Shown piece by piece: positions 18,448 through 29,081 of a DNA stretch of 64,000 nt. How positions within the stretch are numbered: position 1 is the stretch's first letter; each line of letters opens with the position of its first letter. This DNA comes from Phascolarctobacterium faecium DSM 14760 (GTDB lineage Bacteria; Bacillota; Negativicutes; Acidaminococcales; Acidaminococcaceae). The notes beneath the pieces were generated by a model, which saw only the letters and a program-made list of their open reading frames with translations, had not been told where the DNA came from and ran no database searches. The translations under genes and the position numbers were made by a program. Location: positions 558,001 to 622,000 of the forward strand of contig NZ_QLTS01000001.1 of the NCBI RefSeq assembly GCF_003269275.1, given 5' to 3'.

Positions 18448-18603
18448 TTATCTAATTAAAGTTTTTGCTTCATAAAATCTGTCAACCATTTCACTATTTA
18501 GTACTTCATTTACTATTTTTCTAACCTTATTTTTCTTGATTATAACATTATTCTTGCCTATTTGTATGTTTTTTATATTTAGGCATAATTTGAGGCTTTG
18601 CAT
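18448..18603 (-). CDS. Possible small protein overlapping the endonuclease 3' end
   Basis: An open frame of 51 codons begins at ATG 18603, inside the 3' end of the endonuclease gene in another frame, and runs 100 bases past its stop. The product would be a basic peptide with IKKNKVRKIVNEVLNSEM in the middle and YEAKTLIR at the end. Residue composition looks coding-like, but there is no clear ribosome site and AT-rich DNA easily gives such frames. It could also be the remnant of an alternative, longer endonuclease C terminus. Confidence 0.25.
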   Translation of the reverse strand: MQSLKLCLNIKNIQIGKNNVIIKKNKVRKIVNEVLNSEMVDRFYEAKTLIR

Positions 18604-20338
18604 AGTCTCTAATAACTTTATAATCTCTAATAGACACTACATTCTGTGAATAGTCAACAAAATCTACTATGTCCCATGGAAAAATCTCGACATTATTTGT
18701 TTGTCTAATAAGCGCTACCTGATCTCCAACATCTCTTGAAATATTTGATGCTATAAACAGACAAAACCATTCATTGTATCCATTTTTATCTTTAAAGTCT
18801 TTATTCGCTGTAGTTAAAACATGGTTTCTAATTGATGGCAATTCATGCTCAACTTGAAAACTACGAGTTTTTGAAATAGTCGGTTCCATAATTGCATGAA
18901 TAGTATCTTCAAAGACATCAATATCAGCACCAATTTGATTATTTTTCCCTCCTGAAGCAGTGTTAAATGGAATCCCTTGATCATCGGCTTTATAATTAGC
19001 TATTACCTTTAATTTTGGAAGAGCTTTCTTGATAACTATAGCAGATAGAAATTCTAGCCTTACAGTTTCTTTCACATATTTCAAAATAAAATGTGATGAC
19101 GGTCGATTCTCAACGCTATTTATCATTTCATTTTTTAAAAATTCCCAGTCATTTTCTACCGCCCATTTTTCAATCGCTCTTTCCTTTGCATCTTTAGCAT
19201 CTTGAGTTTCAACAGCTACTTGACTAAAAAAAAGCACTTTATCCATAGCTCCCATAAATTCAAAATACTTATCGACATTATCGCAAAAATTAACGTTTGA
19301 ACTATAATTTGTAAGAACATGATTAATCTTTTCTTGCTCGTTTTTATTTATATCAATAAACCGCCCAGCTCCTCGAAGGGAAATAAGCATTGTAAGCCGT
19401 AATTTACGTATAATTTCATCTGGTGTCTCACCCATAACCTTGTCAAATTTATAATCATTTTTCTTTGATAAGATAAAGGATTTGCTAGCAGGAACTAAAC
19501 TATTGTTAGAAGTAGAAGAATCCATTAAATTCATGGCATATTCATATACTAATTCATTTGAAGTATTGTATCCAAATTTTTGACGGAAAACATAAATATA
19601 CTCAGCTAATGTTTCATAATCATTATCACCCCACATAATTATGAATGGTAAATCCTGTTTCGCTATTCCAGGTCTATTATATTTCTCATCTAAGTATTTT
19701 ATTACATTTAGTACAAGTGGAAAAAAATTTACTTTAATAGTGTTTTTTCGATAAGGATTATTGATTTGATATTTCGCAAATGCGTTTAAAAATGCAGACT
19801 GTTCAAACCTTTCATCAAAAGACTCTCCTTTGGGGTATCCATTAACATAATCAGTAATCATTAGCTTACCATTAGAAGAAATTTTCACCTTTTCTCCCTT
19901 CACTACTCTAACAAGGCCTAACTCATTTAAAAAGTTAAATTGTGTATGAATCCTAGATTCCCATCCTCCATTCCAACCTTTATCTTTATGAGCCGTAATC
20001 GTATTTTTCAACAAATAAACTATCTTATCTAGCTCAATTTCTCCAGGCTCACCATCTACCCATTCTTTATAATATTTATCAACTTTTTTGCTAGCATCAG
20101 ACGATTGATCAGCAGCTAAAAAAGAAAATTTATCATTGTAATATTTCACGTAATTGCCTAATGTATTTTTAGTTGGGATAAAAATTTTCTGCCGAATTAT
20201 CTCACCTTCTAATTCTAAGGCTACTTGATCATCAATTGTTTTTCCTTCAAATTTACTCAATACAGAAATAAACTGTGGAATCCTACTTGGATTACGCAGA
20301 GTCGTATCAAAAGAAATAGGTTTTCTCCTTTTTGCCAT
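18548..20338 (-). CDS. AlwI-like type II restriction endonuclease
   Basis: Protein of 596 residues that I assign to the AlwI family of type IIS endonucleases. A helical N-terminal half (about 1-330) is probably the target-recognition region. The C-terminal part holds a PD-(D/E)XK-like arrangement: ADIDVFED (about 480), then MEPTISKTRSFQVEHELPSI with candidate catalytic or structural acids, then a hydrophobic strand before the end. AlwI itself recognises the asymmetric site GGATC and cuts beside it; whether this enzyme shares that site is not known. ATG at 20338 follows GAGGTG at good spacing. It directly follows two adenine methyltransferase genes on the same strand. GC content is clearly below the flanks. 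Confidence 0.75.
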   Translation of the reverse strand: MAKRRKPISFDTTLRNPSRIPQFISVLSKFEGKTIDDQVALELEGEIIRQKIFIPTKNTLGNYVKYYNDKFSFLAADQSSDASKKVDKYYKEWVDGEPGEIELDKIVYLLKNTITAHKDKGWNGGWESRIHTQFNFLNELGLVRVVKGEKVKISSNGKLMITDYVNGYPKGESFDERFEQSAFLNAFAKYQINNPYRKNTIKVNFFPLVLNVIKYLDEKYNRPGIAKQDLPFIIMWGDNDYETLAEYIYVFRQKFGYNTSNELVYEYAMNLMDSSTSNNSLVPASKSFILSKKNDYKFDKVMGETPDEIIRKLRLTMLISLRGAGRFIDINKNEQEKINHVLTNYSSNVNFCDNVDKYFEFMGAMDKVLFFSQVAVETQDAKDAKERAIEKWAVENDWEFLKNEMINSVENRPSSHFILKYVKETVRLEFLSAIVIKKALPKLKVIANYKADDQGIPFNTASGGKNNQIGADIDVFEDTIHAIMEPTISKTRSFQVEHELPSIRNHVLTTANKDFKDKNGYNEWFCLFIASNISRDVGDQVALIRQTNNVEIFPWDIVDFVDYSQNVVSIRDYKVIRDYAKPQIMPKYKKHTNRQE

Positions 20339-20347
20339 ATTCACACC

Positions 20348-21319
20348 TCAATTATAATAATTGGTTACATATATTTCTTTACTGTCTTTTTTTATAGTAT
20401 TATCAAATCTTGAGATATAATTACTTTCAATTTTGTATTCTCTATAATTTTTTGACCATTCAAATAAAATATCATTCTGTTTTCCCTTGTGAGATAACAT
20501 ATTAGACAGTCCCCACTTTATTCCTTTCCGGTCTAGTCTATCTAACACGCTATATAGACGTCGTTCATCTTTTTCACTCCAAAGCTTATTATAGTCGCTG
20601 AAAGTAATAAGATATGGTGGATCAAAATATAGAAAATCATTTGAAGTTAATTCAATAGATTCAACAAATTTTTCAAAGTCCATTCCTGATGATAAAGTTA
20701 CCTCATTGTTGTTATACCATGACGAATAATTTTTCAGTGCCGCAGTAACATTTTTATTCCAATCAACATTACCAACTGGCAAATTAAACTTTCCTTGCCT
20801 ATTGAATCGAATCATATGATTAAAACCATAAACCAGCAGCAAATATAGAAAATCAATATTTGACTGATCTTTGTTATAATCATTTCTAAGTCTCAAATAT
20901 GCATCTTTATTATAATTTGAAAAATATGTTTTAATATATATTTTTTTTAGTTCTTCTATTTCAGTAGTCGTACCTTTTTCAGAAAGACTTAGTCCATATT
21001 TTTTAATCAAGTTATACATTTTTTCAATAAAGTAATCAATATCTTTTGAAGCGATTTGAAGATGCTCATGCAACTCAATTATTTTCTCATCCACATCATT
21101 CATCACAATTTTTTTTGCATTAACATTAATTGACGCGCTCCCTCCACCACAAAAAACATCATAATACGTATCAATGTCGTTAGGAAATAGCTTTTTTAGT
21201 TGAGGCATTAGCTTGTATTTATCACCAACATAAAACAAAGGAGATCGTATTGATTTCTTTTTTTTCTTTTGTGACTCAACATCATATACCTCAGCAACAA
21301 ATAATACAGGTTGCATCAT
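20348..21319 (-). CDS. DNA adenine methyltransferase, D12/Dam class
   Basis: N6-adenine methyltransferase of 323 residues that would protect one strand of the target site. Motif I is DVFCGGGSASIN (about 57-68), preceded by the YVGDKYKLMPQL segment that binds the methyl donor, and motif IV is YFDPPYLI (about 233-240, DPPY form). The order and spacing fit the Dam-like alpha class. The ATG overlaps the stop of the upstream methyltransferase (ATGA), so the two are translationally coupled. The endonuclease begins about 10 bases after its stop. Confidence 0.9.
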   Translation of the reverse strand: MMQPVLFVAEVYDVESQKKKKKSIRSPLFYVGDKYKLMPQLKKLFPNDIDTYYDVFCGGGSASINVNAKKIVMNDVDEKIIELHEHLQIASKDIDYFIEKMYNLIKKYGLSLSEKGTTTEIEELKKIYIKTYFSNYNKDAYLRLRNDYNKDQSNIDFLYLLLVYGFNHMIRFNRQGKFNLPVGNVDWNKNVTAALKNYSSWYNNNEVTLSSGMDFEKFVESIELTSNDFLYFDPPYLITFSDYNKLWSEKDERRLYSVLDRLDRKGIKWGLSNMLSHKGKQNDILFEWSKNYREYKIESNYISRFDNTIKKDSKEIYVTNYYN

Positions 21320-22566
21320 TTTCCTACCTCTGTAATAAAAACGAATTCTTTGTGATCTTTGAGATTAGTTTTTCCAGCATTAAAAAACTGAAATGAGCGT
21401 TCAAAACTTTGAGTACTTCCTACATTATTTAGTGACTTAATAATTTCCTCATGTGTAATTTTGTTTTTTGAACTGCTACTCTTTGGTTTGTATGTATTAT
21501 TATAAGTAACAACTATGTATCTTACATTCAAGTTCTTAATCAAATCGTCAAATATCATTGGAGCATTAGTTTTTGAATACTCACTCATATTTTCAACTGG
21601 TGGTTTCATAGCAACACCCTCTAATTTAGGTTTATCCCACTTTACAATTCCTTCTAAAACATGATAAAAACGCGAATACTGTCTAGAGTTGTATGGTGGA
21701 TCAACAAAAGCTACATCTGCTGATACTTTACGTACAAGTACATTTGCGTCGTCTCTAAATATCTTAATATCTTTTCCAGACACAACTAACGGATTAATAA
21801 GTTCAAAAATAAATCTATCACTAATATCCACTTTTTTTCTATAAGCATCATAATGTCCAACTGTGTTTGCAATTTTATCGGACGAATATATAAGCGAAGC
21901 AATCAAAATTGACCGCTCACGTTCATTTAAGTCATCTGAATTCTCAATTCGAGTTCTAATCTCACCAATAATTCTTGCATCATATTCGCTGAAAAACTTA
22001 CCACCGAAATTTTCAACAAAATAATCATCATCCATTGAATTTGTACATATTTTTTGGAAATTTCGTTGATAGTTTAATACTTTATCTTCATCATATTTTT
22101 GCATTCCAAAAAAAGCTTTAAAAATTATGTTGTTTGAATATAGAAAGTCATTTATAATAAACTTTCTATACTTTGGCAACATCGCTTTAGAAACTACACC
22201 AGTTCCTGCAAATACATCAAAAAATGAATCGCCCTGGGTATATTCGTCCATCAAACCAGAAATCCAGTTCATCAATTTGCTTTTATTACCAATATAACGG
22301 CGGTTTTCGAGATTATATCGCCCACAAAGATTAGAAAAAACAACATTATATTTATCTTTCAATCTAGTTTCCAAATCTTCGAGTTCTTTCATTACTGCGA
22401 ATCTACTTTTTCCTACAGACTTTGCAATAGCATCAAAATATTCAATATTCCACTTATCTATATCACGTTTATTCATCCTTCTAACTGTCGTTTCAGGAAT
22501 ACCTGAAATCAAATGAACTTTCCTAATATTAGTATTATTTTGCTTCAAGTACGTTTCTAATATCAT
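21316..22566 (-). CDS. DNA adenine methyltransferase with N-terminal DNA-binding-like extension
   Basis: Second adenine methyltransferase, 416 residues, first gene of the restriction-modification operon. Residues 1-70 read like a small helix-turn-helix unit (SGIPETTVRRMN), absent from the neighbour. The catalytic part starts at RYIGNKSKLMNWI (about 90), with motif I DVFAGTGVVSKAM and motif IV VDPPYNSRQYSRFYH. Two methyltransferases for one endonuclease fit a non-palindromic target in which each strand needs its own enzyme. The start is placed at ATG 22566, behind GAGGTG, rather than three codons upstream at GTG. A TATAAT hexamer lies about 20 bases before the ribosome site. Confidence 0.88.
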   Translation of the reverse strand: MILETYLKQNNTNIRKVHLISGIPETTVRRMNKRDIDKWNIEYFDAIAKSVGKSRFAVMKELEDLETRLKDKYNVVFSNLCGRYNLENRRYIGNKSKLMNWISGLMDEYTQGDSFFDVFAGTGVVSKAMLPKYRKFIINDFLYSNNIIFKAFFGMQKYDEDKVLNYQRNFQKICTNSMDDDYFVENFGGKFFSEYDARIIGEIRTRIENSDDLNERERSILIASLIYSSDKIANTVGHYDAYRKKVDISDRFIFELINPLVVSGKDIKIFRDDANVLVRKVSADVAFVDPPYNSRQYSRFYHVLEGIVKWDKPKLEGVAMKPPVENMSEYSKTNAPMIFDDLIKNLNVRYIVVTYNNTYKPKSSSSKNKITHEEIIKSLNNVGSTQSFERSFQFFNAGKTNLKDHKEFVFITEVGK

Positions 22567-23131
22567 CTCTTTCACCTCGTATTTTAATATTATAACATAT
22601 ATTTACCATCTTAATTAATAAAAATCGGCGTATTTGATGGATGATTTTAAACTCACTATGATGATGCAACCATTTATACATCTTTATCAATCATCTAATT
22701 CGAATCTATTTTTGTATGATATATGATCGTTATTATGTAGTATCTATATTAACATATCGTCTTAGCAACTAACTTTATAATACATTTTAAGCTGGGAATA
22801 TCTTTTCCTAAATCCTTTATTCATTTGATTTCATTCACCTGCATATTTCTATACTGTTTCAATTATATATAATCTCCAATCTCACTGACACCCTATACTA
22901 ACATACTTCTCTGTATTTTCCTATATTATTGTTATATCTCGTAAATACTATACAAATGCTTCTGTATTATAATTTCTTTCAACCATATTTTTCAACTTAT
23001 TATATTAATTTTCTCTACTATAAACAAGATCCTATCTCATGATAAGCAACACTACTTTTCCAACGTCTGAGCTTTTTTATTATCTTGTTAAGTTTTAAAA
23101 CAAAATTTATTTATATTGTTGACTAAAAAAG
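22567..23131. other. AT-rich gap right of the restriction-modification genes
   Basis: About 560 bases without a supported gene. Between 22801 and 23040 the plus strand has about 50 C and only about 10 G, so the minus strand is purine-loaded as in the neighbouring minus-strand genes. One minus-strand frame reads fairly well but contains five stops, so a decayed gene is possible. The promoter of the methyltransferase operon lies at the left end. Confidence 0.5.
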
Positions 23132-23200: not shown

Positions 23201-24256
23201 ATGCAAACAAAAAAATTAAAATACCTGCTGCTGTTTGCCGTTATCGCAATAGCCGCCGCAGTGGCATGGTACTTTGCCTACTGGGTCAAAACGCCGCAGT
23301 ATTCGCTGGGCCTTATTGGCAGCGCAGTACAAAAGCACGATTTTGCGGCTTTTGAAAAGCACGTCGATATGGAAACACTTTACAGCAGTGCTTATGACGA
23401 TGTCGTTGTTGCCTCTTTTGGTAACGAACGCCTGTCAAGCCCGATTCTGGCTGCGTTAGTACAGAATATCAAAGGTGTTGCCGTCCCGATCCTGATCGAC
23501 CAGACCAGACAATACGTCAACGGCGGTACTATGGAAGAAGCAGATCCAAGTGATGCTGACTCGCCGATGCTGCAAAACAACGGCACTGATATTGTCAATA
23601 ATCTGAAAAACAAGACAGGCGTCAATTCTATGCAGTATCAGGGTGTGGAAAAGATTCAGAAAAATGGCAGTGTCGCTGTCGTAACCATCAAAGTTTTCGA
23701 CAGCGAATTAGACAAACATTTTTTAGTAGAACTTGCTATGCAGCAGCTTACTGACGATACCTGGCAGATAACCAAGATCAACAATCTGAAAACTTTGATC
23801 AATGAACGTGATCAGGCCTTACAAAACAAACTGGCTGAACTTAACGCTCCTGTACAAAAGCAGATCGGCGACGCTGTTGCCGTTTCTCCGCAAAAAATCT
23901 TTATAACTTCGGCTCCTTATTCCGGCGTTATACGCCTGTTAGAAGCAGATATTCAGCTGACTAACAACGCGATGAGGGAGTTGCAGTATTTTACCGGTGT
24001 TCTGGAGCTTTACAACGCTGATAATGAATTATTTTACAGTGGTAATTTTGCCAGCAGCAAAGACCTTGCCGCCAAACAGACCGCAGTTTATAAATTCAAC
24101 TGGGAGCTGAACCCTTTTCTGACTGATGATGCCAAGGTTATGAACAGCGATTTCAGCAAAGTGACTTGGAAGGCTTCTCTAAGCAGTCTGTCCTTTGCCG
24201 ACGGCTCTACAATCGAACTTTTAACGCAGCTGCCTGTTAAAGCAGCAACTAAATAA
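23201..24256 (+). CDS. DUF2939-type membrane-anchored protein
   Basis: Protein of 351 residues with one N-terminal membrane segment (about 7-27) and an extracytoplasmic remainder. Residues about 33-200 fit DUF2939, with the characteristic pattern YSLGLIGSAVQKHDFAAFEKHVD that pairs a short helix with a conserved VD. The C-terminal part (about 230-350) looks like a beta-rich domain that may interact with other envelope components. Function unknown. ATG after GAGGGG. It has its own promoter and a strong terminator, so it is a single-gene unit with normal GC beside the AT-rich island. Confidence 0.75.
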   Translation: MQTKKLKYLLLFAVIAIAAAVAWYFAYWVKTPQYSLGLIGSAVQKHDFAAFEKHVDMETLYSSAYDDVVVASFGNERLSSPILAALVQNIKGVAVPILIDQTRQYVNGGTMEEADPSDADSPMLQNNGTDIVNNLKNKTGVNSMQYQGVEKIQKNGSVAVVTIKVFDSELDKHFLVELAMQQLTDDTWQITKINNLKTLINERDQALQNKLAELNAPVQKQIGDAVAVSPQKIFITSAPYSGVIRLLEADIQLTNNAMRELQYFTGVLELYNADNELFYSGNFASSKDLAAKQTAVYKFNWELNPFLTDDAKVMNSDFSKVTWKASLSSLSFADGSTIELLTQLPVKAATK

Positions 24257-24303: not shown

Positions 24304-24828
24304 TTACCACTGACAGCAGGCTTTCGCTTTGCTGCGGATCAAAGCACCGCCATCTTGCAAAGTTCCGTCGGCAGATGCCAGCTTCCACAGATCCCATCTT
24401 TCAAAAGTCGTTGCCGGCCCATAATCATCAAGGTCAGCCGCTTCTGCATGAGTCATAACATAATTATCGTCGATCGGCAAATCCAGTCCCCGGCACAAAA
24501 CCGCTACTACCCGCGCCAAGGTTTCTAACTGTTGCCGTGTAGGCGGCACGCTGCCAAAGTCCACACCGCCATCGGCATAAGCCACCGCGTCGGCGCAGCA
24601 GCAGATGCTTACCGCAACTGCGCCGCTGTTACGATGCCAGGTATGCTCTTTATATTCTGTCAGTTTCCCGCAGCTGCTCCACACTGTACCATCACCTGTG
24701 ATATTCAAGTGATAGTCGTCATAAGTATTGTTATAATGCCCCGCCGTCCAGTGCAAATAAATCCTTCTGATCTCACCCTTTGCGTTTTCAGCCAGCGCCG
24801 CCAATTCCTGCAATGTTATTTCACGCAT
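24304..24828 (-). CDS. N-acetylmuramoyl-L-alanine amidase-like (PGRP fold) protein
   Basis: Protein of 174 residues related to amidase_2/peptidoglycan recognition domains, which cleave the bond between muramic acid and the stem peptide using zinc. The metal ligands are visible as LHWTAG (about 25-30), HTWHRN (about 62-67) and VMTHAEA (about 124-130), with the strand HLNITGDGTVW between. There is no signal peptide, so it acts in the cytoplasm or needs a helper to leave the cell, as phage endolysins do. It is the last gene of the minus-strand run that starts near 29.0 kb. ATG after GGAGGG. Confidence 0.8.
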   Translation of the reverse strand: MREITLQELAALAENAKGEIRRIYLHWTAGHYNNTYDDYHLNITGDGTVWSSCGKLTEYKEHTWHRNSGAVAVSICCCADAVAYADGGVDFGSVPPTRQQLETLARVVAVLCRGLDLPIDDNYVMTHAEAADLDDYGPATTFERWDLWKLASADGTLQDGGALIRSKAKACCQW

Positions 24829-24844
24829 TTTCTATCCCTCCGTC

Positions 24845-25843
24845 TCAGGCTGCCTGCGCCTGCTGCTCATCATAAAACTTCTCAACAGTTATATCACAGG
24901 TTTTGCCATTGCTTTTTATAATAATATCGCCGCATAAAGCCGTATTGAAAACATCGGCCTGTAAATTGTACAGTCTTTGTACCACTTCCGGGCTGGGATG
25001 CTTATATTTATTACCTTCGCCGCTGCTGATGACCGCTATTTTCGGTTTGACAGCAGCTAAAAATTCATTGATCGATGATGTTTTACTGCCGTGATGCGCC
25101 ACTTTTAAAACCTGCGCCTGCAGTGCCTCAGGGTCAGTTTGCAGCAGATCACGTTCTACTTCGGCCTGAATATCCCCGGTCAGCAGCATTGCAAAATCTT
25201 TATACTCCAACCGCAGCACCAGACTGTTGTTATTGGTGTCAGAAGGAGTCCCCTTATACAGCGTCTGCGGACTCAGGACCTTCAGCTTCACCATTTCATT
25301 GACCGGAACTTCCTGACCGCCGCGCAGTACTTCAAAAGGAATCTGTTCCTTTTCTATCTGCAAACGAAAGTCGTTATACATTTTAGTTTTATAATTCTGA
25401 CCGCTGTCATAAACATGTTTTACCGGAAACCTGTTCAGCACCGCTTTCATACCGCCGATATGGTCGGCATGCGGATGTGTAGCGATCAGCATATCGATCT
25501 GCTCGACATGATTTTCTTCCAGCTTGGTCAGCAGCCTGGCAGCTTCGCTGCGGTCGCCGCTGTCGATCAGGATATTTTTCCCCTGCATTTGTACCAGGAT
25601 ACTGTCTCCCTGTCCAATATCCAAAGCTGTAACGGCAAGGATATCGTCAGCAGTTTTCACAGCTTCCTGTGTTTTTGCCTCCGCTTTTGGCGGCATTTCT
25701 TCGGGTACTGCAGTATCCATCGTCTGTAACTGCTCCAGCAAAACCGGCACATAACTTTTTATCAGCTCGCTGTCTTTAGTAACAACGCCGGCTGCAAGCA
25801 CCAGCGCAGCCAAAAGTATCGCTAAAAATGAAGTCTTCTTCAT
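24845..25843 (-). CDS. ComEC-like metallo-beta-lactamase-fold hydrolase
   Basis: Protein of 332 residues with an N-terminal signal peptide or anchor (about 4-20), a low-complexity linker, and a metallo-beta-lactamase domain from about residue 68 that resembles the C-terminal domain of ComEC: ALDIGQGDSILVQ, then ATHPHADHIGG (metal ligands), LLTGDIQ and VLKVAHHGSKTS. It has no ComEC channel domain. Substrate unknown; related stand-alone proteins may be nucleases or phosphodiesterases outside the membrane. ATG after AAGGAG. It lies 12 bases behind the patatin gene and 16 bases before the amidase gene. Confidence 0.85.
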   Translation of the reverse strand: MKKTSFLAILLAALVLAAGVVTKDSELIKSYVPVLLEQLQTMDTAVPEEMPPKAEAKTQEAVKTADDILAVTALDIGQGDSILVQMQGKNILIDSGDRSEAARLLTKLEENHVEQIDMLIATHPHADHIGGMKAVLNRFPVKHVYDSGQNYKTKMYNDFRLQIEKEQIPFEVLRGGQEVPVNEMVKLKVLSPQTLYKGTPSDTNNNSLVLRLEYKDFAMLLTGDIQAEVERDLLQTDPEALQAQVLKVAHHGSKTSSINEFLAAVKPKIAVISSGEGNKYKHPSPEVVQRLYNLQADVFNTALCGDIIIKSNGKTCDITVEKFYDEQQAQAA

Positions 25844-25855
25844 ATGTTCCGCTCC

Positions 25856-27094
25856 TTAATTTAAATGCAGATCGTGATGCAGCGGCTTAAAAATACTCAT
25901 TTTACCACCGCGCTCCAGCACTGCTGTTGCAAAACCTGCGTCATAATCTGGCAGCTCCGGCATTTTGCTTTGCTGCAGCTGTTCATTGCCGGGCAGCAGC
26001 AATCTTAAAGCATAATCTATTTTTACCGCTCCCAGCCACATCAGATACTCTATCTCGACATCGTGGAAGCCGTCCATATCGGTCCTCAGTGCAGCACACA
26101 GCTGTTCCACCTGCAATAGCTGTTCCATATTCATTCCCCTGGTTCCACGCTCGCGCCAATATTCTATAATCTTTCCTAGCCCACGACCTAAAATAAGCTG
26201 CTGATGCTGTTTCACCTCAAAAAGCAGCCGGCGGCGCAGATACACGACCTGATCCAGCCCTACTGCCAAAGTACGGTTGGCAAGCTCCAACTTGCTCATG
26301 TGTGAATTATCCCACAAAGGTTGGCTTGCACCGGATGCATCCAGCATCAGTAATGGAACAGGCGATTTCAGCATACTTTCACTGCCCAGATTATCATAAA
26401 CGCCGCCATCAGTCAGATAGAGCTTGGCCGGATTTTCCGGTTTCTGCGTTCCCGTACCGTAAAGATCCCTGAATTCTCTTGCCTCTACATCCAGTTCCAA
26501 AGGTGCGAAGCCTACCGGATAAGCAGCCGAAGCCGCAACGGCAAAAGCAATGGGGATATCGTCGATATCACTGCTGCGCCCCAGCAGATAACCGTAAATA
26601 TCACTACTTTTAAACCTGAATCTTTTTAAGGTATTGATACAGGTAGCATTGCAGCTCCATTCTGTCGCTGCCTCTGCCTGCTTCATTTTTCTGCCTTCAA
26701 ACAGTTCTTCGTCTAACACCTGTGGAAAAGCTTTACTCATCTTCGGCCTTAAAGCAGCCGCCAGAGCCAACTGCTGCAGCTTGGGCAGATATGGCAGCAG
26801 ATAAGCGAGCCAGGATGCTTTTGTCATGATACGCCTGCGGAAATTGCACTGCCCCAGATTGATCAGTTTCGTTGTCACCCGCCTGTCAAAATCAAGCAAA
26901 CTGCTGAAATCACCTTCTGCCAAAGCGCTGATGACAGCACCTGCAGCAATACTGCCGCCGGACACAGAGGTTATTTCGCTGACATGTTTTTCAAGTCCCA
27001 GCTCTACTAATCTGCGGTAAGCCCCAAGACAGTAAAACGTAGCTCTGAAACCGCCGCCGCTGAAACCCAGATTGATCTTATTATCTATTTCCAC
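25856..27094 (-). CDS. Patatin-like phospholipase
   Basis: Predicted lipid acyl hydrolase of 412 residues. The oxyanion loop is GFSGGGFRA (about 9-17), the nucleophile elbow is SVSGGSIAAG (about 44-53, serine in the GxSxG-like position with the first glycine replaced by serine), and the catalytic aspartate lies in TDGGVYDNLGS (about 270). No signal peptide or transmembrane segment is seen, so it is cytoplasmic or membrane-peripheral. The frame is open to 27157, but that stretch contains the terminator of the preceding gene; GTG at 27094, nine bases after AGGAGG, is the likely start. Its neighbours are DUF2589-type genes and a hydrolase gene. Confidence 0.85.
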   Translation of the reverse strand: MEIDNKINLGFSGGGFRATFYCLGAYRRLVELGLEKHVSEITSVSGGSIAAGAVISALAEGDFSSLLDFDRRVTTKLINLGQCNFRRRIMTKASWLAYLLPYLPKLQQLALAAALRPKMSKAFPQVLDEELFEGRKMKQAEAATEWSCNATCINTLKRFRFKSSDIYGYLLGRSSDIDDIPIAFAVAASAAYPVGFAPLELDVEAREFRDLYGTGTQKPENPAKLYLTDGGVYDNLGSESMLKSPVPLLMLDASGASQPLWDNSHMSKLELANRTLAVGLDQVVYLRRRLLFEVKQHQQLILGRGLGKIIEYWRERGTRGMNMEQLLQVEQLCAALRTDMDGFHDVEIEYLMWLGAVKIDYALRLLLPGNEQLQQSKMPELPDYDAGFATAVLERGGKMSIFKPLHHDLHLN

Positions 27095-27109
27095 TTCATT
27101 TTCCCTCCT

Positions 27110-27140
27110 TTGAAAAAAGCCGCCCATAACAGGCGGCTTT
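27110..27140 (-). terminator. Terminator between the 89-residue gene and the patatin gene
   Basis: Stem AAAGCCGCC / GGCGGCTTT plus a T-run on the minus strand, two bases after the stop of the upstream gene and just before the patatin ribosome site. It would give partial separation of the two transcription units. Confidence 0.85.
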
Positions 27141-27141
27141 C

Positions 27142-27411
27142 TTAATCTTCCAGCCATACCGGCCTTCTGGCAAAACCAACATGGTAAACTATGTACTGCA
27201 TCACCACCTGATGCTCACCGATATTCAGCAAATAGAAATTCTTCTCCTGTCCGATGATCCGTCCGCGCGGAGAATCTGACAGACAGCGGTTTAGCAGCTG
27301 ACGCTGCTTTTCAATGTCTTCCTCATTTACTGTTTTTTCTGGATCGGTATTGCCGATAACAACACGTTTTACATAGCCCACCGCACTTACATCAAATGGT
27401 TTCGTCATCAT
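27142..27411 (-). CDS. Small protein of unknown function in the DUF2589 cluster
   Basis: An 89-residue protein that I do not recognise. It is soluble, mixed alpha/beta, with a central DIEKQRQLLNRCLSDSPRGRIIGQEK helix-turn stretch and a C-terminal strand-rich part (NFYLLNIGEHQVVMQYIVYHVGF). ATG start after GGCAGG. It lies 22 bases behind the larger DUF2589 gene and is followed at once by a terminator, so it is the last gene of that transcription unit. Confidence 0.7.
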   Translation of the reverse strand: MMTKPFDVSAVGYVKRVVIGNTDPEKTVNEEDIEKQRQLLNRCLSDSPRGRIIGQEKNFYLLNIGEHQVVMQYIVYHVGFARRPVWLED

Positions 27412-27433
27412 AGTTACCTGCCTTTACACCTCA

Positions 27434-28072
27434 TCAGGCAACGTCATTATCAGCTGTATAATGTTCTTGCCCCTGTGCTCCTGCTGCCGCAGTTTTCTGG
27501 ATACTTGTTGGGTTGATCGCCGTATTGAGGATATCCAAAACACGGGACAGACCTTCCGGCATCTCGCCCTGAGTAGCGCGGACCTGCACATGATATTTTG
27601 CGGAATTATCACTCTTACGGGTATTTTCCTTATGGCTGGAGATAGATCCCTTAACTTTGGCTTTCATACTGAAAGGACCGATCTGCAAACCCATCTCTGC
27701 TTCCAGCTCGCCTTTTTTATCGTCGATTTCCGACTGAGTTTCCGAAGATTTTACTTCCATATCGAAGGTAATATCTACCAGATCGATCGACAGAGACGGA
27801 ACTTTGACCATCGCCAAAAGCGGGATATTCATTTCCACTTTTTCAGAAGCGGGACCATTGCCGTCATCGCCGTTAGCGCTGCGTGTAAAGCTGAACCCTA
27901 CGGTACGTACGACCTGTTTATCGCCTTCCTTAACCAGGCCGACCTCTTCAATAAAGCGAGCCGTTGCGCCGGCCAGCATCGTCTGTGCGTCACAGGCAGC
28001 CTGCAGCGGACCGCCGATCAAAGACTCCATTGGCAAACCGCCGAATTCTTCCGCCATTTTTACTAATGCCAT
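27434..28072 (-). CDS. DUF2589 domain-containing protein
   Basis: Protein of 212 residues that matches my memory of DUF2589 closely: MAEEFGGLPMESLIGGPL at the start, a central DLVDITFDMEVKSS strand, a lysine/aspartate-rich loop, then SSHKENTRKSDNSAKYHVQVRATQ and EGLSRVLDILNTAI near the end. It is soluble and beta-rich with no signal peptide or catalytic motif that I can see. The family has no established function. The shorter gene just upstream (28104-28547) seems to be a relative, and the two probably act together. ATG after AAAGGATG. Confidence 0.88.
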   Translation of the reverse strand: MALVKMAEEFGGLPMESLIGGPLQAACDAQTMLAGATARFIEEVGLVKEGDKQVVRTVGFSFTRSANGDDGNGPASEKVEMNIPLLAMVKVPSLSIDLVDITFDMEVKSSETQSEIDDKKGELEAEMGLQIGPFSMKAKVKGSISSHKENTRKSDNSAKYHVQVRATQGEMPEGLSRVLDILNTAINPTSIQKTAAAGAQGQEHYTADNDVA

Positions 28073-28103
28073 AATTAACTACATCCTTTCTGTTTGTACT
28101 TTA

Positions 28104-28547
28104 TCAGGGCAGTATTTTCACCATCTGATCATTGATTTTCATAACTGCTTCAGGAGGATCGTTAGACTCAAACAGCAATTCTACATCGACAAAATTATCG
28201 GTATCCGTTTTGTTGGAAGACAAAATATTTGCCAGCAGACCGCTGTCATTGCTTTTACCATCATCCCAGCTGCTCAGCTTTACCTTAAACTTCAGCTTCA
28301 TCTCCTTCAGCTTCAGAGAATTCATCGGTACCAGCGCAATTTTCGGCACCTGCACCAGTACATATTCCAGTTCGCCTGTGTCAGGATTGATACGAGGATA
28401 TTGGATATCAAAAGTCAGCGGTTTCTGCGACTCGTCAAAATAACGTTTCATAACATTCAAGTGCTGATTTTCGATCATACTGTGCGCTTTTAAAATTGAT
28501 TCCTGCATCGCTCCCAACAAATTCTCAAAGTATTGCTTTTTCGCCAT
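28104..28547 (-). CDS. DUF2589-related protein, short form
   Basis: Protein of 147 residues. The N-terminal part (LGAMQESILKAHSMIENQHL) is helical; the centre (PKIALVPMNSLKLKEMKLKFKVKLSS) reads like the strand pair of DUF2589, with the same pattern of an IPL/VPM-type turn before a long beta strand ending in K-rich residues. The C terminus is FESNDPPEAVMKINDQMVKILP. Family membership is inferred from this pattern and from its position beside a clear DUF2589 gene. ATG at 28547 follows GAGGAGGAG; a GTG one codon earlier is possible. Confidence 0.65.
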   Translation of the reverse strand: MAKKQYFENLLGAMQESILKAHSMIENQHLNVMKRYFDESQKPLTFDIQYPRINPDTGELEYVLVQVPKIALVPMNSLKLKEMKLKFKVKLSSWDDGKSNDSGLLANILSSNKTDTDNFVDVELLFESNDPPEAVMKINDQMVKILP

Positions 28548-28565
28548 CACGGCTCCTCCTCATAA

Positions 28566-28760
28566 TCAAAATTTACGGCTGTAAAGATCGGTCACCTTAA
28601 CCTGCAGCGCTCTTGCCAAAGCGTCAAGAACCGGAACAGTCGGATGCCGTTCGCCTAATTCGATCGCACTGATCATACTTGTACTGATACCTGATAATTT
28701 AGATAAATGCTTTTGCGTCATACGTTTCTCAGTGCGGACCTGGAAACAGATAATAACAAA
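28566..28760 (-). pseudogene. XRE-family HTH regulator, possibly frameshifted at its start
   Basis: A minus-strand frame encodes a complete XRE helix-turn-helix: RTEKRMTQKHLSKLSGIS, then STSMISAIELGERHPTVP and LARALQVKVTDLY. An ATG exists only inside this domain (28721, giving 51 residues). The frame stays open upstream to about 28760 and encodes a good continuation of helix 1 (FQVRTEKR), but no start codon lies there, while an ATG at about 28770 behind a GGGGGG ribosome site is in a different frame. So either a one-base shift has broken the start, or a non-standard start is used. It is too short for usual gene finders. As a regulator it would control the DUF2589 genes. Confidence 0.6.
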
Positions 28761-28780
28761 TCATAAGCCAGCCCCCCTTT

Positions 28781-29020
28781 CTAGGTGCCTTTTTCTTTAG
28801 CTCCTCCCCGCAGCTTCAAAAAGTTTTCCATACCGACTTTGGCAAAATAACCGCTGATGATAACAGAAAACGGACCGTCAACATAATCTATCAGCCTGTC
28901 CGGTATTTCTCTGTATATTAACCAAGTGCCGGCCGAAAACATTATGATGCCGACAAATAACCAGGTCACCGTTCCGACAACCTTTTTGGAGAAGCTCAGT
29001 TTTTCATCATCAAGTTCCAT
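28781..29020 (-). CDS. Small membrane protein, holin-like in size and layout
   Basis: Protein of 79 residues. One clear membrane helix (about 15-35, TVTWLFVGIIMFSAGTWLI) follows a charged N terminus; a second, weaker hydrophobic stretch (FSVIISGYFAKVGMENFL, about 50-67) precedes a lysine-rich tail. I do not recognise the family; size and layout recall phage holins, and an amidase-like gene lies at the other end of this run. The start is placed at ATG 29020, eight bases after GGGAGG, and not at the GTG three codons upstream. Confidence 0.65.
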   Translation of the reverse strand: MELDDEKLSFSKKVVGTVTWLFVGIIMFSAGTWLIYREIPDRLIDYVDGPFSVIISGYFAKVGMENFLKLRGGAKEKGT

Positions 29021-29059
29021 AGCTTTCACCTCCCTGGCTTTACATTACTATTATCTTTA

Positions 29060-29081
29060 TCCACAATGGTGGAATATTATA
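29060..29081 (-). promoter_or_regulatory. Promoter and possible operator of the DUF2589 cluster
   Basis: Minus-strand -10 TATAAT at 29076-29081; the -35 is poor (ATTAAA-like). At 29060-29073 a perfect inverted repeat TCCAC / GTGGA with a 4-base spacer covers the expected transcription start, a typical place for a repressor site. Confidence 0.5.

What the first reader, a model, noticed from the sequence alone, without database searches (positions are those of the whole stretch)
24304..29081. Minus-strand cluster: DUF2589 pair, patatin-like lipase, ComEC-like hydrolase, amidase, XRE regulator, small membrane protein
Seen: eight genes in one direction with short gaps, mostly 10-35 bases, and one terminator in the middle. 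A DUF2589 protein and a shorter relative sit with an unrecognised 89-residue protein, a cytoplasmic patatin-like lipase, an exported metallo-beta-lactamase-fold protein, an amidase-fold protein without signal peptide and a small membrane protein, under an XRE-type regulator. Known: DUF2589 has no assigned function; patatin-like lipases serve as membrane-damaging effectors in some defence systems. Inferred: a regulated membrane- or wall-acting module, either a defence/stress system or a domesticated phage-lysis-like cassette.
Basis: partly seen in the sequence, partly recalled or inferred. Interest (0 to 1): 0.6.

Follow-up and report, generated by a model that had tools for sequence, protein, structure and literature searches.

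The report
DUF2589 operon with a borrowed phage lysin
A bacterium carries a widely shared but unstudied trio of genes (two DUF2589 proteins and an 89-residue protein) that, across at least seven phyla, usually sits beside a wall-cutting enzyme of phage-lysin type, which suggests that its products work through, or are released by, a controlled breach of the cell wall.

Summary
The eight genes are real. A terminator-like hairpin after the 89-residue gene splits them in two.

Upstream part: small membrane protein, short XRE regulator, DUFb, DUFa, p89. The last three form a conserved mobile core. Among 88 DUFa loci from elsewhere (at least seven phyla), 81 hold p89 and 78 a recognisable DUFb. DUF2589 is rare near home (2 of 380 genomes of the class, this one included).

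Downstream part: patatin, metallo-beta-lactamase-fold protein, amidase. The first two do not recur beside DUF2589 elsewhere. The amidase fits a pattern: it is a captured phage endolysin (61% identical to one in a prophage of the same genome). Wall-acting enzymes of unrelated families stand on the same strand beside the core in 62 of 88 loci. GH19/GH108 enzymes lie within 2 kb in 52 loci and nowhere in 1.06 Mb of farther flank. Luteibacter operons also carry a phage-type holin.

Best reading: a regulated lysis or wall-passage cassette that works like a type 10 secretion system, whose product is probably the DUF2589/p89 complex. That the complex is cargo, and what it does, is inferred. A defence role has no support. 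The literature held contains one passing mention of DUF2589.

The parts
28781..29029 (-). sMP: 82-aa small membrane protein, one clear and one weak membrane segment, basic C-terminus; candidate holin (inferred)
   Evidence: Hydrophobic peak at residue 17; no Pfam, PADLOC or NCBIfam match, PHROGs only at E 0.04-0.08; a GYFxKxGxEN signature shared with a small membrane protein on two viral contigs, next to a lysis region in one
28566..28721 (-). XRE-type (HTH_3) protein, 51 aa, first helix missing; likely regulator, possibly damaged at its 5' end
   Evidence: HTH_3 3e-12 from profile position 10
28104..28550 (-). DUFb: shorter DUF2589 protein of the core
   Evidence: PF11655 5e-21; homologue found in 78 of 88 loci
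27434..28072 (-). DUFa: main DUF2589 protein of the core
   Evidence: PF11655 8e-49; 45-58% identity to relatives in at least seven phyla
27142..27411 (-). p89: 89-residue protein, third member of the core
   Evidence: Homologue in 81 of 88 loci; R16, G20, N41, G50, Y76 invariant in 55 sequences; AlphaFold2 pLDDT 90
27113..27140 (-). Terminator-like hairpin directly after p89
   Evidence: Sequence; stem also listed on the + strand
25856..27094 (-). Patatin-like lipase (412 aa from GTG 27094), local accessory
   Evidence: PF01734 2e-16; found in no other of 63 genomes of the order nor in other DUF2589 loci
24845..25843 (-). ComEC-C-terminal-like metallo-beta-lactamase-fold protein with N-terminal signal/anchor, local accessory
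   Evidence: PF00753 7e-20; ComEC_Rec2 1e-44, below that model's cut-off; similar proteins in 59 of 63 genomes of the order
24304..24828 (-). Amidase_2 endolysin without signal peptide, captured from a phage
   Evidence: PF01510 1e-9; phrog_5867 endolysin 5e-34; 61% identical over 169 aa to a prophage endolysin of the same genome
24264..24299 (-). Terminator-like hairpin after the amidase
   Evidence: 15-bp stem and T-rich tail

Best explanation
The locus is a horizontally spread DUF2589 cassette (DUFb-DUFa-p89) to which this genome has added a phage endolysin. It works like a type 10 secretion / phage-like lysis cassette. Under a regulator (here probably the XRE protein) the cell makes the soluble, signal-less DUFb, DUFa and p89 together with a cytoplasmic wall hydrolase and a small membrane protein; the membrane protein lets the hydrolase reach the wall (holin role), the wall is breached, and the DUF2589/p89 product acts or is released. 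Shown here: the core, its spread, the exchange of hydrolases beside it, the phage origin of this amidase, the lack of signal peptides, and a phage-type holin in Luteibacter operons. Inferred: that DUF2589/p89 is the cargo rather than a lysis helper, that sMP is the holin here, that the amidase is co-regulated with the core in spite of the hairpin between them, and that the patatin helps to disrupt membrane.
For: Core conserved in 78-81 of 88 loci. GH19/GH108 enzymes on the same strand within 2 kb in 52 loci, none on the other strand, none in 1,058 kb of farther flank. Ten more loci with Amidase_2, Amidase_3, phage lysozyme, Muramidase or PG_binding_1 proteins. At least ten changes of neighbouring-enzyme class on the DUFa tree. 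GH19/GH108 members lack N-terminal hydrophobic segments and representatives match phage endolysin families. Holin phrog_2359 at 2e-11 and 4e-12 in Luteibacter operons. Small membrane proteins after the core in Pseudomonas, Xanthomonas and Luteibacter. Window amidase is an endolysin with a 61% identical copy in a prophage of the same genome. The Lachnospiraceae locus L046, one of the two nearest relatives, also has an Amidase_2 enzyme 239 bases after p89. Precedent for lysis cassettes that release large complexes: PMC10847048, PMC10101115.
Against: In the window the amidase is separated from the core by a hairpin and two genes. sMP is holin-like only in topology. No spanin was recognised in the window. 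26 of 88 loci, including the other near relative L044, show no recognised same-strand signal-less wall enzyme. No experiment on any DUF2589 protein was found, so cargo status is untested.
Confidence: 0.5

Rival explanations
1. Effector-delivery reading: DUF2589/p89 proteins are adaptors or carriers for antibacterial effectors. The neighbouring enzyme (wall hydrolase, lipase, protease) is the exchangeable effector and the nearby periplasmic Cys-containing protein is its immunity protein.
For: The exchanged enzymes are of effector-like kinds: wall hydrolases, a Tle1-like phospholipase in L114 and astacin-like proteases in L048, L054, L123, a patatin in the window. A signal-peptide protein recurs beside the hydrolase in Pseudomonas, Luteibacter, Azospirillum and Xanthomonas.
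Against: No type VI sheath gene in this genome. No fusion of DUF2589 with an effector domain was seen in the loci. The hydrolases look like plain endolysins. A holin in Luteibacter points to lysis. Lipases are rare beside the core.
Confidence: 0.2
2. In this genome the amidase operon is merely adjacent to the DUF2589 operon: two unrelated accessory units in one variable region.
For: Terminator-like hairpin between them. Patatin and MBL protein not found beside DUF2589 elsewhere. The near relative L044 has no recognised hydrolase close by.
Against: A signal-less endolysin-type enzyme beside DUF2589 is the rule in other loci, and the near relative L046 has one of the same Pfam family.
Confidence: 0.2
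3. DUF2589/p89 are controllers: cytoplasmic proteins that hold back, chaperone or activate the wall hydrolase, in a cell-wall remodelling or stress programme without cell death.
For: They are soluble and signal-less, and the partner enzyme is always of one broad function while its family changes.
Against: A controller should co-evolve with its enzyme, but the core stays conserved while the enzyme is exchanged between unrelated folds.
Confidence: 0.12
4. Anti-phage (abortive) defence module with patatin as membrane-damaging effector.
Against: No PADLOC match for DUFa, DUFb, p89, patatin, amidase or sMP; the MBL and XRE matches are generic superfamily hits. Patatin does not recur with DUF2589.
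Confidence: 0.05

Closest known systems
Type 10 secretion systems / non-phage lysis cassettes (Serratia chitinase cassette, Yersinia entomophaga YenLC, typhoid-toxin TtsA)
   Same: Endolysin without signal peptide outside a phage, a holin in some members (Luteibacter), a dedicated regulator nearby, linked soluble proteins without signal peptide
   Different: The linked product is an unstudied DUF2589/p89 trio instead of a chitinase or toxin; holin not proven in the window, no spanin recognised, lysin family changes between hosts
Phage lysis cassettes (holin-endolysin-spanin)
   Same: The amidase is 61% identical to the endolysin of a prophage in this genome
   Different: The core is almost absent from phage collections; no phage structural genes seen around the window cluster on reading the ORF lists
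Pfam DUF2589 (PF11655)
   Same: Both proteins exceed the family's gathering score
   Different: The family has no assigned function; the p89 partner and the lysin association are not part of its description (own knowledge of the Pfam entry)
Type VI secretion / interbacterial effector modules
   Same: Exchangeable lytic enzymes and a possible periplasmic immunity-like protein
   Different: No T6SS sheath gene in this genome; no effector fusion seen

Membership tests
DUF2589 (PF11655) | Score over Pfam gathering threshold (23 bits) | tested here: met
   166 bits (DUFa) and 76 bits (DUFb)
Phage endolysin of Amidase_2 type | Amidase_2 domain over threshold and closest to phage endolysins | tested here: met
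   39 bits against cut-off 26; phrog_5867 endolysin 5e-34; prophage copy 61% identical
Phage endolysin of Amidase_2 type | No signal peptide of its own (holin-dependent type) | tested here: met
   No hydrophobic N-terminal segment by hydropathy; no dedicated signal-peptide predictor was available
Type 10 secretion system / bacterial lysis cassette | Endolysin encoded outside a prophage with linked non-phage genes | tested here: met
   ORF lists of the window; core nearly absent from phage collections
Type 10 secretion system / bacterial lysis cassette | Holin in the operon | tested here: inconclusive
   Window: sMP has only weak phage matches. Luteibacter loci: met, phrog_2359
Type 10 secretion system / bacterial lysis cassette | Spanin pair (Gram-negative hosts) | tested here: inconclusive
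   None recognised among the ORFs of the window cluster; small or embedded genes could be missed
Type 10 secretion system / bacterial lysis cassette | Release of linked proteins depends on holin and endolysin | not testable with these tools
   Needs gene removal and supernatant proteomics
Anti-phage defence system | Match of the core proteins to known defence models | tested here: not met
   No PADLOC match for DUFa, DUFb, p89, patatin, amidase, sMP
Type VI secretion effector module | T6SS sheath gene (VipA/TssB) in the genome | tested here: not met
   PF05591 absent from G000, control rings in E. coli

The most novel reading that the evidence does not exclude
DUFa, DUFb and p89 (with a fourth small protein in many Proteobacteria) assemble a previously unknown multi-protein particle or weapon, built in the cytoplasm, spread by horizontal transfer over at least seven phyla, and freed by whichever phage lysin the host has recruited.
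Probability: 0.25. Interest if true: 0.85.

Novelty: new variant of a known kind. Interest (0 to 1): 0.62.

Why it matters
DUF2589 is an orphan family with no functional study in the papers held. Repeated recruitment of unrelated phage lysins beside one conserved trio gives the family a directly testable role and would add a new product class to lysis-based secretion. Because the core spans Gram-negative phyla and Bacillota, it can be tested in harmless, tractable strains.

Tried and rejected
(1) Single-sequence scan of genome contigs with DUFa found nothing; the alignment query found 134 relatives, 80 fetched. (2) Patatin, MBL, sMP and XRE as parts of a conserved system: no homologue in 88 DUF2589 loci; patatin gave only weak plasmid hits. 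(3) Fold searches: DUFa no PDB match at E<=0.001, best Z 3.9 (flagellar rod, 65 residues); p89 best Z 4.7; sequence searches of the PDB empty or chance; nothing concluded from these. (4) Viral contigs gave no relatives of the window amidase or sMP at that tool's sensitivity. (5) Lytic transglycosylase (SLT with SBP_bac_3) near Vibrionaceae, Paraburkholderia and Helicobacter loci: mostly antisense and mostly with an N-terminal hydrophobic segment, so not counted as cassette lysin. (6) Whether the fourth small protein (gamma) is a DUF2589 relative: profile comparisons with the DUFb alignment failed in the script; only Xanthomonas against Pseudomonas gamma (E 7e-5) and Burkholderiales against Xanthomonas gamma (7e-4) were informative. 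(7) The distant DUF2589 locus of another phylum member (L036/L125) has no recognisable hydrolase by eye and probably belongs to another subgroup.
Full report
WHAT IS THERE. The eight minus-strand ORFs are as described. Reading downstream: sMP (28781-29029), a 51-aa XRE-type protein (28566-28721), DUFb (28104-28550), DUFa (27434-28072), p89 (27142-27411), a hairpin with T-run immediately after p89 (27140-27113), then patatin (best start GTG 27094), the ComEC-like metallo-hydrolase, the amidase, and a second hairpin (24299-24264). The simplest reading is two transcription units. The tools give the genome no name (2.3 Mb, 21 contigs).

RARE NEAR HOME, WIDESPREAD FAR AWAY. DUF2589 occurs in 2 of 63 genomes of the order, 2 of 380 of the class and 2 of 398 sampled from the phylum, this genome counted in each. 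Distant relatives are nonetheless close in sequence: 54-56% to Vibrio plasmid proteins and about 50% to a plasmid protein of a cockroach-gut deltaproteobacterium. The genome-contig scan found 134 relatives, of which the best 80 were fetched. They cover Pseudomonadota, Thermodesulfobacteriota, Myxococcota, Campylobacterota, Spirochaetota, Acidobacteriota and Bacillota. This patchy spread with high identity points to horizontal transfer. Phage collections hold almost none: one short unannotated metagenome scaffold and one contig of 2.9 million, whose DUFa is identical to that of a Roseateles genome.

THE CORE. Of 88 loci with DUFa, 81 have a p89 homologue and 78 a recognisable DUFb, usually in the order DUFb-DUFa-p89 on one strand. 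In Oxalobacteraceae and Burkholderiaceae the order is DUFb-p89-gamma-DUFa, and in some desulfovibrios DUFb comes last. In Helicobacter, Campylobacter and Brachyspira a gene of about 195 codons stands in DUFb's place and may be a divergent DUFb (not tested). p89 has no family in Pfam, PHROGs, PADLOC or NCBIfam, yet keeps R16, G20, N41, G50 and Y76 invariant in 55 sequences. AlphaFold2 gives it a confident small alpha/beta fold (pLDDT 90) without convincing PDB match (Z at most 4.7). DUFa is modelled with moderate confidence (pLDDT 68): long N-terminal helices, strands and a C-terminal helix, no clear PDB match. None of the three window proteins has a signal peptide or clear membrane segment by hydropathy.

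THE NEIGHBOURS. Patatin, MBL, amidase, sMP and XRE of the window have no direct homologue in these loci. Clustering of neighbours gave instead GH19 and GH108+PG_binding_3 enzymes. As a control inside the same loci, hmmsearch of all ORFs found GH19 or GH108 within 2 kb on the same strand in 52 loci (336 kb of near flank), none on the opposite strand, and none in 1,058 kb of farther flank. Ten further loci carry other wall-acting proteins: Amidase_2 (L046), Amidase_3 (L114), phage lysozyme (L061, and by homology L041), Muramidase PF11860 (L040, and by homology L096 and L043) and PG_binding_1 proteins (L118, and by homology L081 and L103). That makes 62 of 88 loci. GH19 and GH108 members lack N-terminal hydrophobic segments and their representatives match phage endolysin families best. 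On the DUFa tree the class of neighbouring enzyme changes at least ten times; this count also includes the antisense transglycosylase and the astacin-like protease classes. So the core is stable while the enzyme beside it is exchanged. Luteibacter operons contain, downstream of GH108-DUFb-DUFa-p89, a protein of holin family phrog_2359. Pseudomonas, Xanthomonas and Luteibacter operons have a small membrane protein after the core, with a signal-peptide protein bearing conserved cysteines next to it. Regulators of AraC, LuxR-type response-regulator and PhoB-output type stand nearby.

THE WINDOW FITS. Its amidase is an endolysin: phrog_5867 5e-34, 61% identical over 169 aa to an enzyme in a prophage of the same genome that follows tail-fibre, tail-fibre-assembly, Rz-like and small membrane genes, and 47% identical to a third copy. 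The nearest DUFa lineages are Eubacterium callanderi (L044) and a Lachnospiraceae bacterium (L046) (SH-aLRT 92); L046 has an Amidase_2 enzyme 239 bases after p89. By eye, the patatin keeps its GxSGG serine and DGG motifs and the MBL protein its HxHxDH motif. These two form a tight run with the amidase but appear to be local additions: patatin was found in no other of 63 genomes of the order, and similar MBL proteins in relatives stand without patatin or amidase within about 1.5 kb.

MECHANISM. A signal-less, presumably holin-dependent endolysin outside a phage, linked to soluble signal-less proteins and a regulator, is the look of the lysis cassettes called type 10 secretion systems. For these, lytic release of a large complex by a few cells has been shown (PMC10847048, PMC10101115), and non-lytic passage is also argued (PMC9527704). 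By this analogy DUFb/DUFa/p89 are most simply the product that the wall breach serves. Limits: the window amidase lies behind a hairpin, sMP is only topologically holin-like, no spanin was recognised, 26 of 88 loci show no recognised same-strand signal-less wall enzyme, and no experiment on any DUF2589 protein was found.

RIVALS. I give 0.5 to the lysis/wall-passage reading as stated. Effector delivery gets 0.2: the exchanged enzymes are effector-like and a periplasmic protein recurs, but this genome has no T6SS sheath gene. Accidental adjacency of the two operons in this genome gets 0.2; it can hold while the general association is true. A controller role gets 0.12 and anti-phage defence 0.05.

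NOVELTY. The literature held has one passing mention of DUF2589, as a cluster up-regulated in Archaeoglobus on lactate. The association with exchangeable lysins appears undescribed there; subscription papers could not be searched. Because it resembles lysis-cassette secretion with an unknown conserved product, I rate it a new variant of a known kind, with a real chance that the product itself is something new.

Noticed in passing
window 18548-22575 (minus strand): Three adjacent genes that look by eye like a restriction-modification block (two DNA methyltransferase-like proteins and a 598-aa protein), just downstream of the cluster; not searched.
   Followed up: no
G000 contig 9, L141:6370-11278: Prophage with tail-fibre, tail-fibre-assembly, Rz-like, small membrane protein and an endolysin 61% identical to the window amidase.
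   Followed up: partly
L065:11376-11909, L112:11374-11922, L078:11573-12052, L086:6909-7652: Recurrent signal-peptide protein with paired cysteines beside the hydrolase in DUF2589 operons; possible periplasmic inhibitor of the lysin. No Pfam or PHROGs match for those scanned.
   Followed up: partly
L112:12899-13318, L115:8110-8565: Proteins with AHG...D(A/I)C motifs, caspase-like by eye, near DUF2589 operons; no PADLOC match, and no Pfam match for the L115 one.
   Followed up: partly
L039:4218-5885, L047 and L063 (554-562 aa gene upstream of DUFb): A mechanosensitive-channel gene (annotated so in L039) stands close to the DUF2589 core in several Vibrio loci.
   Followed up: no
L048, L054, L123 (119-341 bases after p89): Astacin-like metalloprotease instead of a wall hydrolase in Sphingomonas/Parerythrobacter DUF2589 loci.
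   Followed up: partly
L086:7692-8690 and 12 other loci: A roughly 330-aa protein with several membrane segments recurs 0.5-3 kb from the core in 13 loci; no NCBIfam match.
   Followed up: partly
L098:267-4445: SUKH/GAD-like immunity-type genes around DUFa in Vibrio neptunius, where p89 was not found.
   Followed up: no
window 28722-28765: The HTH reading frame of the XRE gene continues upstream of its ATG for about 14 codons without ATG/GTG/TTG: damaged 5' end or rare ATT start.
   Followed up: no
window 23201-24256 (plus strand): Membrane-anchored DUF2939-like protein convergent with the amidase gene; homologues in 30 of 41 relatives and a paralogue in this genome.
   Followed up: partly
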